Assembly: GCA_025352825.1 (NCBI GenBank)
Contig: JANXSG010000233.1
Coordinates: forward strand, 1 to 40,528
Direction of reading: 5' to 3'
DNA: 40,528 bases
Source of the DNA: Chthonomonadaceae bacterium
Lineage (GTDB): Bacteria; Armatimonadota; Chthonomonadetes; Chthonomonadales; Chthonomonadaceae
Position 1 is the stretch's first letter. The number at the start of each line of letters is the position of its first letter. Below, in pieces: positions 1-2,698 of this stretch. The position numbers and the translations under genes are program-made. Under the pieces are notes generated by a model. That model saw only the letters and a program-made list of their open reading frames with translations. It was not told the origin of the DNA and ran no database searches.

Positions 1-60
1 ACTATTCGCAAAGCTGTCTAGCCGATTGCGCCACATTTCCAAAATTTCTGTACTGACCAT
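1..60 (-). CDS. N-terminus of a transposase-like ORF, cut by left edge
   Basis: A minus-strand frame starts at the ATG complementary to 58-60 and stays open for all 20 codons to the window edge. A very good ribosome binding site (GGAGG, 7 bases before the ATG) supports a real start. The peptide begins MVSTEILEMWRNRLDSFANS. The E-x-W-R-x-R-L-x-x-F-x-x-S pattern resembles the start of IS66-type accessory proteins (TnpA) and related helix-turn-helix transposase subunits, which usually go on with G-L-S-x-x-x-F-C. That assignment is from memory on 20 residues only. An insertion sequence next to a decayed Rhs locus would be unsurprising. It could instead be an unrelated small protein. Confidence 0.45.
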   Translation of the reverse strand, partial: MVSTEILEMWRNRLDSFANS

Positions 61-94
61 AAAAGCACCTCCGAATTATGATGCTCTCATTATC

Positions 95-490
95 CTACAT
101 TAGAGGATTGAAGTTGAAGGTGGCAAATATTGGACGCTTACCAAAGGAATGAGATAAATCGATAATTAATTGTTCAAAATTATCACTTATGATTTTATCG
201 CTATTTATGGAAATAGCAAATCGACCATGAAATGGCCTTGGTCCCCATGCAGTGAGAAGACTACCTTCAACTTTTGGACGTCTTCGCTTCCAATGAATAT
301 CATTATTGCAAATATCAAGAATGAGTTCATGGTCTGAAGGATCGGCTTTATTTCTTAATGGTTCATAGCTCCCAAATCGTTCGGGATATAACTCCGGGTA
401 TGACTTATACAAGCCTTCCAAGAAATTTTTGCCTTCTTGTAGACTTGTAAGACTGTTCCCCACTAGGATATTTATATCAATAGAATGCAT
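95..490 (-). CDS. Putative immunity protein downstream of Rhs toxin tip
   Basis: A 131-residue soluble protein with no signal peptide and no family I recognise with certainty. The open frame extends upstream to 565, but that part runs through a perfect 22-bp hairpin, so the ATG at 490 (peptide start MHSIDINILVGN) is preferred; an ATG at 523 is also possible. Neither has a strong ribosome binding site. A central stretch HWKRRRPKVEG followed by LLTAWGPRPFHGRF looks like a conserved core. The position, directly after the toxin-bearing 3' end of an Rhs gene on the same strand, is where immunity genes of polymorphic toxin systems lie. The function is therefore inferred from context. If the toxin is dead, this gene may persist as an orphan antidote. 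Confidence 0.5.
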   Translation of the reverse strand: MHSIDINILVGNSLTSLQEGKNFLEGLYKSYPELYPERFGSYEPLRNKADPSDHELILDICNNDIHWKRRRPKVEGSLLTAWGPRPFHGRFAISINSDKIISDNFEQLIIDLSHSFGKRPIFATFNFNPLM

Positions 491-530: not shown

Positions 531-580
531 TGAGATTTTATCCTGATGACATAAATGAATGTCATCAGGATAAAATCTCA
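531..580. terminator. Perfect 22-bp hairpin between toxin end and immunity gene
   Basis: Bases 531-552 and 559-580 are exact reverse complements, separated by 6 bases. The hairpin begins 4 bases beyond the TAA (584-586) that ends the Rhs toxin frame if its internal TGA is ignored. It lacks a T-run on the minus strand, so it may be a terminator, attenuator or RNA-processing stem rather than a classic intrinsic terminator. Confidence 0.6.
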
Positions 581-583
581 ACT

Positions 584-1480
584 TTAGAACTTGTATGGAC
601 TGAATAGACCGGTCGTTATGTTGAATACCCTGATACTACCACTTTCACTCATCGCCTGGATTAATGTCTTAGAAAGTTTCGATGTGGGACTTACAATTCA
701 ATTATAAGTTGCGCCGCTTGCTCTTGCTGCATTGATCTGGGCTTGTATCTGCTTAGTAAGAGACAGTTTCAGAGAGTCTTTAATTTCAGTGATCGCACCA
801 TGTTCTAATGCATCTGGTATTGTTGTATAAGCTGCTCCAGCAAATGTAGTACTGGGGATACCGACGTGATTCTCTGCCAAGCCTAATGCACCAAGTGCAA
901 GCCTTTGGAATGAAAGACCAGCTGCCCGATTTGCCACGACTTGAGCAACCGCTGGTGCAGCTTGCGCGGCAGCAGCAGAGCTTAACTTGCTTGCGACAAA
1001 CCTACTTACTCTACTTCCGACAGCTCCGATTGCTCTCCCTGAAACGTAGGTTAGTACACCATCAGTTACTCCATTGAACAGCGATTGCTTGATAGTGTTT
1101 CCATCGGCCCGACTTCCTATTGCCGAGCCTAATCCCGCACCAGCAGCTATTGCGACTGGGTTACCTGCAGTGAGCACTCCCGCAATAGCGCCTCCAGCTA
1201 GGCTGTACCAGAACCGTTTATCATATTTCAATCCACTCGGATCGGCGTAGTTTATTGGGTTATTACCGCAGAAGGTGTAGAGGTTGATGCCACCTGCGTA
1301 ACCAACCGGGTCTCTGGTGAGGAAACGGCCTGTATTCGGATCGTAGTAGCGCAGGCCGCAGAGTACGAGTGGAATTCGTATGGTAGGCGTGGATATGTTG
1401 ACAGGCGCAGTCTCGTTGTCGGTATAGTACCCCCATTGCCCGCCGAAACCAACCATGTCCGGAGATGTAAAGGGGTTGCC
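584..1480 (-). pseudogene. Rhs core and C-terminal nuclease-fold toxin, with in-frame stop
   Basis: The frame carries the hallmark Rhs core: GQWGYYTD, then CGLRYYDPNTGRFLTRDPVGY, GGINLYTFCGNNPINYADPSGL. After the core comes a glycine/alanine-rich membrane-active-looking linker, then a toxin tip with IPDALEHGAITEIKDSLKLSLTKQI. The D...E-x-K pattern fits the restriction-endonuclease fold of Tox-REase-type tips. The frame hits TGA at 694-696, right after GATYN, but continues past it as IVSPTSKLSKTLIQAMSESG to a TAA at 584-586. That continuation matches the typical end of this toxin class (Y-x-L-I-V-x-P-x-T-x-L-S), so one base change (for example TTA to TGA) probably killed the toxin. Upstream the frame is disconnected from the DNRLRE part. 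A residual insertion after YYTDNET disturbs the core. Confidence 0.85.
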
Positions 1481-2432
1481 TCTCGGCTGGAAAAGACCAC
1501 GCCATTCCCATCCTGCCAGATCGAGTTCGCAATGATCTGTACAGTACCCACCTGCCCTAGGTGCGATTGCACGAATCCGGTAACATCGATGGCGGTCATC
1601 CCAGGCTGGAGCAGAACGGAGGTGATATCCAGCAGCGTTCCATCGATATTCGTGGTGTTGGCCTTATTGAGGTTCGGGGCAGTGTCCCAGGTGATGCCCG
1701 TCTCCAACCAGGCAGGGTTGCCGGCAGCGAATAGACATTGACGGCGTAGGCTCTATCTGCGACATTAGGAGCACTGGAGAAGTAGAGTTTTAAGAATGCT
1801 CGTGCAGGCGAAGAAGTCACGCCGGTGAGATCGAACTTCAGGTAGGTGACTCGTGTGCCAGCAGAAGGCGGAGTTGAGTCGGTCTTTACCACCAGAGTGG
1901 TGAGGCCGCCGAAGTTGGCTGCATGAGAGGTGCCGGCTTGCACGAAGGCGTCTGCTGTAGGTGTCAGAAAGAAAGATGTGGTGGTATCGACGAGCACAGT
2001 GAGTGTCGCTGATGTAGGCACACCAGCGTAGGTGACGGTGATGATCGGGGACTGGGAACTTCCGGTCGTGAGCGGAGCCACATCCACGATGAAGGTTTCC
2101 TGAGTATCACCGGTAGCACCTCCTATAGAGGTGGGCACAGAAGCGATAGCGTTATTTGATGAGAGATAGAATGCTCCGGACCCTGCAGGGAGCGCTCCGC
2201 TGAATTTGATAGTTGCCGTGGTATAGGTACCACCGTAAACGATAGTGGGGTTCAGAGTAACTGAAGTAACAGTCACGGCCTTTGCGGATATACGTGCACA
2301 AATCATAATAGATGCGAGTAGTAAGTATTTCATGAGTGAAGAAGCTACTCTCAAAATTGTGTTCTGGCGAGCAGGCAGTGAGGAAAAGCCGGCCATGTTG
2401 GCAGACCGGCAGATGTTTCTGCGGGGATGCAT
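1470..2432 (-). pseudogene. Secreted DNRLRE/CBM96 N-terminal part of the Rhs protein, frameshifted
   Basis: Start chosen at the ATG at 2432, preceded by AAAGGAA at good spacing. The frame encodes a long basic leader with a hydrophobic signal core (MKYLLLASIMICARISAKA), an Ig-like beta domain (TVTSVTLNPTIVYGG...), and then a DNRLRE (CBM96-type) carbohydrate-binding-like domain beginning DAFVQAGTSHAANFGG. Near 1705-1735 the reading frame changes: VNVYSLPATLPG continues in another frame as GNPAWLETGITWDTAPN and runs to SSREATPLH near 1475, the normal end of a DNRLRE domain. A second frame change then leads straight into the Rhs core. Intact relatives carry long Rhs repeats between these parts. 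Here they are missing, so the gene has a large internal deletion plus frameshifts. Confidence 0.8.
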
Positions 2433-2658
2433 AGTTGAATTCCTTTCATGAGGTTTCAACAAAGCGAGTGAAGAGACGAGTTATTTTGGTGAAAAAAGAG
2501 GATGTGAACAGTGGTATTGAATTGTCATCCTGGACAATGCATAACTTCAAGACTAGTATATCGACTATGCTGCATAATGTCAAGTAAGTTATATTAAATT
2601 TTGATTAAGGTTTTGGAAATATTTGGAAAGCTAGTGGATAGTCTATAAACACAAATTG

Positions 2659-2698
2659 CCCCTTCTCCTATTTTGGGGAGAAGGGGTGCGGGTGAGGG
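2659..2698 (-). repeat. Solo end of the MITE-like repeat, possible terminator
   Basis: A diverged copy of the repeat end: CCCCTTCTCCTATTTTGGGG pairs with the following GGAGAAGGGG, followed by the G-rich tail ending TGAGGG. It lies 9 bases beyond the stop codon of the cytochrome c gene and may terminate its transcript. Confidence 0.75.

What the first reader, a model, noticed from the sequence alone, without database searches (positions are those of the whole stretch)
584..1480. Rhs toxin tip inactivated by a single in-frame TGA
The minus-strand frame stops at TGA (694-696) just after GATYN but continues in the same frame with IVSPTSKLSKTLIQAMSESG to a TAA at 584-586. That continuation completes the expected end of a restriction-endonuclease-fold toxin (D...E-x-K seen upstream). 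One substitution thus separates the gene from an intact toxin, a snapshot of toxin loss or of a read-through event.
Basis: partly seen in the sequence, partly recalled or inferred. Interest (0 to 1): 0.7.

Follow-up and report, generated by a model that had tools for sequence, protein, structure and literature searches.

The report
Decayed orphan Rhs toxin–immunity remnant
A leftover tip of a bacterium-against-bacterium toxin gene in an uncultured Armatimonadota genome is broken in several places, and its likely protective partner gene was later cut in two by a jumping element, so this is ordinary gene decay rather than a toxin one mutation away from working.

Summary
The in-frame stop is real but lies at 698-700 (-), not 694-696. 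The 37 codons after it, to the TAA at 584-586, are the true end of a Tox-REase-7 toxin: the PF15649 score rises from 24.5 bits (profile 23-69) to 38 bits (22-84) when the search tool reads through the stop, and the two pieces, searched apart, hit one place in another Armatimonadota genome 7 bases apart.

The claim that one substitution separates this from an intact toxin fails. The gene lacks its Rhs core. Its secreted CBM96/DNRLRE start is fused out of frame to the Rhs tail, a junction shared with contig C54. The start has a one-base deletion relative to a paralogue. The toxin's GxxxE motif reads GxxxQ. The partner (probable immunity) gene is split by an IS66 element: left half here, right half on C54, with an exact 8-bp target duplication (TTCCTTTG) and GTAAGCG/CGCTTAC ends.

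Five of 22 Tox-REase-7 copies in the phylum are broken, mostly at different places. No tRNA-Sec passes its cut-off, no structure follows the TGA, and TGA is a common stop here. This is a decayed orphan Rhs tip cassette, a known kind.

The parts
1..141 (-). Left end of an IS66-family element, starting GTAAGCG at 141 and running off the contig end; first ORF (MVSTEILEMW...) starts at 60
   Evidence: end sequence; first 110 bases 100% identical at seven other places, all at contig ends; IS66 transposase C-terminus at the other side, on C54
142..149 (-). 8-bp target duplication TTCCTTTG; the second copy follows CGCTTAC on contig C54
142..490 (-). N-terminal half of the partner (probable immunity) gene; the ORF as read ends at 95-97 only because it runs into IS66
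   Evidence: window matches model positions 4-101 of 262, C54 matches 114-262
531..580 (.). Perfect 22-bp inverted repeat with 6-base loop between toxin end and partner gene; role unknown
   Evidence: (-34.4 kcal/mol, z -12.3)
584..697 (-). 37-codon continuation plus TAA: natural C-terminus of the Tox-REase-7 tip
698..700 (-). Premature TGA
701..922 (-). Tox-REase-7 domain before the stop; IPD, EIK and Q present, GxxxE reads GLSFQ
1229..1366 (-). Last part of the Rhs-associated core (TIGR03696 positions 31-76); the rest of the core is missing
1232..1563 (-). CBM96-end/Rhs-tail junction block, out of frame, 80% identical without gaps to C54
1474..1707 (-). Second part of the CBM96/DNRLRE domain, in a different frame from the first part
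1722..1723 (-). Site of a one-base deletion relative to the C286 paralogue (frameshift inside the CBM96 domain)
1596..2462 (-). Secreted N-terminal ORF with first part of CBM96; 1504-2698 is 86% identical to C286

Best explanation
The stretch 142-2462 is the remnant of an Rhs-type toxin-immunity cassette: an orphan toxin tip that lost its delivery part and is decaying. A secreted CBM96/DNRLRE start was fused, with loss of the Rhs core and out of frame, to the last part of the core, a Tox-REase-7 nuclease tip and its partner gene. Without the delivery part the tip was presumably not deployed, so lesions built up: a premature TGA that removes the last 37 residues, a Glu-to-Gln difference in the GxxxE motif, a one-base deletion upstream and, recently, an IS66 insertion that splits the partner gene. 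The cassette continues on contig C54 with another CBM-end/Rhs-tail block and another tip, as in an array of orphan modules. Shown: the lesions, the homology of the continuation, the IS66 ends with the target duplication, the shared junction. Inferred: the order of events, the lack of delivery or expression, the immunity role of the partner, and that one IS66 copy joins C51 to C54.
For: Continuation is the toxin end. Rhs core missing, only TIGR03696 31-76 left. CBM96 split over two frames, one base fewer than C286 at 1722/1723 and junction shared gaplessly with C54. GxxxQ where intact copies have GxxxE. Partner halves tile one family model, 4-101 here and 114-262 on C54, with TTCCTTTG next to GTAAGCG/CGCTTAC and an IS66 transposase end on C54. 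Broken copies are common in the phylum: 5 of 22. Orphan rhs/cdi modules without delivery parts, some disrupted by IS elements, are known.
Against: The tip ORF itself has only one stop in about 290 codons and the partner gene was open up to the IS66 hit, so the tip may have decayed only recently or may still be under some selection. Expression and delivery were not measured. C51 and C54 were not joined by a read.
Confidence: 0.9

Rival explanations
1. One reading: a gene intact until a single recent nonsense mutation, so that one substitution separates it from a working toxin.
For: The tip ORF is otherwise open from 1456 to 584 and its end is well preserved.
Against: Core missing, junction out of frame, frameshift upstream, GxxxQ, partner gene split by IS66.
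Confidence: 0.05
2. Recoding: the TGA is read through (selenocysteine or programmed read-through) and a full toxin is made at low level.
For: Continuation is conserved in sequence; G244 has a frameshift at the same codon.
Against: No tRNA-Sec over the gathering score; RNA after the TGA less structured than shuffles; TGA is the commonest stop of long ORFs in the window; other copies are broken elsewhere in the domain; the gene is broken upstream anyway.
Confidence: 0.02
3. The TGA is a sequencing or assembly error in a draft metagenome-type assembly.
For: Draft with 298 contigs; the contig ends in a repeated IS66 end 700 bases away; no reads available.
Against: Single-base errors are rare in well-covered assemblies (general knowledge); the missing core, the shared junction and the IS66 split do not depend on this base.
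Confidence: 0.05

Closest known systems
Orphan rhs-CT/rhsI and cdiA-CT/cdiI modules (Koskiniemi 2014, PMC3967940; Poole 2011, PMC3150448)
   Same: Displaced toxin tip with a short piece of the conserved upstream part, partner gene behind it, further tip modules nearby; some known modules are disrupted by IS elements.
   Different: Here the upstream piece includes a CBM96/DNRLRE start rather than a long core fragment, the toxin and partner are both broken, and the host is an Armatimonadota draft genome; no main rhs gene was identified next to it.
Tox-REase-7 (PF15649) polymorphic toxins (PMC3482391)
   Same: IxD, ExK and Q motifs, C-terminal position after an Rhs tail.
   Different: Truncated by TGA, GxxxQ for GxxxE, subfamily end TGxFxPY, and a partner family not among those listed for it (HEAT, Imm23, Imm54).
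IS66-family insertion sequences (hallmarks in PMC11946415)
   Same: GTAAGCG ends, 8-bp target duplication, IS66 transposase C-terminus.
   Different: Only the two ends were seen; the middle lies between contigs.

Membership tests
Tox-REase-7 (PF15649) | Profile score over the curated cut-off (25 bits) | tested here: met
   38 bits over 22-84 when the stop is read through; the ORF alone scores 24.5, just below
Tox-REase-7 (PF15649) | Motifs IxD, ExK, Q | tested here: met
   IPD, EIK, Q in alignment with intact copies; motifs from PMC3482391
Tox-REase-7 (PF15649) | Motif GxxxE | tested here: not met
   Reads GLSFQ; the intact copies that cover the motif have E
Orphan Rhs tip module | Rhs-core end followed by toxin tip and partner gene, without the delivery part | tested here: met
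   TIGR03696 31-76 only; partner half at 142-490
Orphan Rhs tip module | Lies in an array with other tips | tested here: inconclusive
   C54 carries a further CBM-end/Rhs-tail block and tip, but C51 and C54 are linked only by the IS66 ends
IS66 insertion | GTAAGCG ends, 8-bp target duplication, IS66 transposase | tested here: met
   hallmarks in PMC11946415
Immunity protein (partner gene) | Encoded directly after the toxin | tested here: met
   Same family follows the toxin in G013 and G244 and a toxin remnant in G228
Immunity protein (partner gene) | Blocks the cognate toxin | not testable with these tools
   No Pfam match for any member; role inferred from position
Selenoprotein / programmed read-through | tRNA-Sec in the genome and a structure just after the UGA | tested here: not met
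   the genome is 95% complete, so absence of tRNA-Sec is not absolute

The most novel reading that the evidence does not exclude
In Armatimonadota this toxin-partner pair survives mostly as dead toxin with open partner: among loci with the partner family the toxin is broken or nearly gone in the window, G244, G228 and G102 and open in one G013 locus, while the partner gene stays open (here until the IS66 hit). If general, the toxin half is being shed while an unnamed immunity family is kept as protection against neighbours.
Probability: 0.2. Interest if true: 0.4.

Novelty: new member of a known kind. Interest (0 to 1): 0.2.

Why it matters
It replaces a tempting story (a toxin one base from intact) with a decay path in which delivery part, toxin end and partner gene are all hit, the last step being a clean IS66 insertion with a perfect target duplication. 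The unnamed ~260-aa partner family is a candidate immunity family for Tox-REase-7 toxins. Otherwise the case is ordinary.

Tried and rejected
Plasmid and phage collections held no relative of the toxin pieces or the partner. A profile of the C-terminal ends of the other Tox-REase-7 copies did not single out the 37-residue continuation (2.7 bits, below many controls), because this subfamily ends differently (TGxFxPY); homology was therefore tested against G244 and G228. The best non-self hit of the continuation by E-value, G106:C9, showed no toxin context when read and was dropped as chance. A first idea that the partner is Imm52 came from memory; Pfam gave no match, so it is not claimed. Selenocysteine and read-through were considered and rejected. 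Lesions at the same codon in the window and in G244 were considered as a recoding site; other copies are broken elsewhere, so coincidence is preferred. A search of other phyla failed because the centre must be a genome handle. No structure was predicted.

Full report
Observation. The TGA is at 698-700, not 694-696, and the same frame runs on for 37 codons to TAA at 584-586. The window is a whole contig (C51, 40,528 bases) of a 298-contig draft genome, 95% complete. The closest relatives of a neighbouring transporter gene come from Armatimonadota.

Is the continuation the toxin's end? The 252-aa ORF alone matches Tox-REase-7 (PF15649) at 24.5 bits, profile 23-69 of 84, just under the cut-off of 25. 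The genome search, which reads through stops, gives 38 bits over 22-84 with one TGA inside. The two pieces were then searched apart in 291 genomes of the phylum. The part before the TGA hits G244:C19:217718-217930 (E 1.7e-10). The 37-residue part hits, among weak chance matches, G244:C19:217938-218048 (E 0.68), 7 bases further on the same strand. Their alignment scores 56; none of 20,000 shuffles reaches that. In G228 the 37-residue piece hits just upstream of a partner-family gene, where only the last part of a toxin is left, ending GTIWRYDAVTGMFSPY-stop; the window ends GSIRVFNITTGLFSPYKF-stop. The continuation is thus the natural C-terminus. A family-wide profile of C-terminal ends did not pick it out, so the claim rests on this subfamily and on the read-through score.

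Is it one substitution from an intact toxin? No. (1) Upstream of the tip only the end of the Rhs core remains (TIGR03696 positions 31-76). Directly before it lies the end of a CBM96/DNRLRE domain in another frame. C54 in the same genome has the same junction with the same frame relation, 80% identical over 332 bases without gaps, so this is not an assembly slip. (2) The N-terminal region 1504-2698 is 86% identical to C286, which reads through this part of the CBM96 domain in one frame; the window has one base fewer between 1722 and 1723, which splits the domain over two frames. C286 itself goes on into an Rhs core in another frame, so that copy is damaged too. (3) The published motifs of Tox-REase-7 are GxxxE, IxD, ExK and Q (PMC3482391). 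The window has IPD, EIK and Q, but GLSFQ where the intact relatives that cover this motif have GxxxE. (4) The partner gene is cut.

The partner gene. The ORF at 98-490 (-) matches the N-terminal half of a ~260-aa family that stands after Tox-REase-7 toxins in G013 and G244. C54 of the same genome holds a C-terminal half. With a profile of three whole relatives the window matches at 4-101 and C54 at 114-262. The window half stops at TTCCTTTG followed by GTAAGCG; on C54 CGCTTAC is followed by TTCCTTTG and the second half. The C54 side carries the C-terminus of an IS66 transposase (PF03050, PF13817). The window side holds the start of a small ORF, and its first 110 bases are 100% identical at seven other places, all at contig ends. 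A degraded copy on C159 has both kinds of end in one element. GTAAGCG ends and 8-bp repeats are the IS66 hallmark (PMC11946415). So an IS66 element, recent by its identical copies and perfect target duplication, split the partner gene, and C51 and C54 lie on either side of it. C54 goes on with another CBM-end/Rhs-tail block and another tip, as in an array of tip cassettes.

How common is it? In 291 Armatimonadota genomes there are 22 Tox-REase-7 matches in 17 genomes. Five are broken: the window (TGA), two copies in G102 (the same TGA after ExK, so probably one event followed by duplication), G097 (TAG near the start) and G244 (frameshifts). The lesions lie at different places, except that G244 breaks at the window's codon; I take that as coincidence.

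Recoding. TGA ends 12 of 29 long ORFs in the window, two of them from this locus. No tRNA-Sec reaches the gathering score; sub-threshold matches also occur in all control genomes. The RNA after the TGA is less structured than its shuffles. Read-through has no support.

Mechanism and order. Orphan rhs-CT/rhsI modules lacking delivery parts are known from Salmonella; they usually lack start signals, and cdi orphans are sometimes disrupted by IS elements (PMC3967940, PMC3150448). I infer: fusion with loss of the core first (the junction is old, shared at 80%), toxin lesions next, IS66 last. Losing the partner gene is harmless only if the toxin is off, which fits that order but does not prove it.

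Limits. No reads, no second genome of the genus, no expression data. The immunity role of the partner is inferred from position only. No mended toxin sequence was built; the pieces were searched apart, with X at the stop in alignments.

Noticed in passing
window 531-580: Perfect 22-bp inverted repeat with a 6-base loop between the toxin end and the partner gene, folding at -34.4 kcal/mol (z -12.3). Could be a terminator or a small mobile repeat; not checked elsewhere in the genome.
   Followed up: partly
L105:182-2629 (G244:C19): Two successive Rhs tips, each with downstream gene, in one small array; the second is the frameshifted relative of the window's toxin with an open partner gene.
   Followed up: partly
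L107/L154 and L152 (G102:C16): Two tandem toxin copies share the same in-frame TGA after the ExK motif, so the stop probably predates the duplication.
   Followed up: partly
window 1596-2462; L095-L100: The genome has a family of secreted CBM96/DNRLRE proteins with different C-terminal parts (about 770-1000 aa open frames), not all Rhs.
   Followed up: no
window 2233-2698: The upstream non-coding region and gene start are 81-86% identical to regions on C286, C13 and C151, so promoter and signal-peptide part are repeated as a unit, two of them at contig ends.
   Followed up: no
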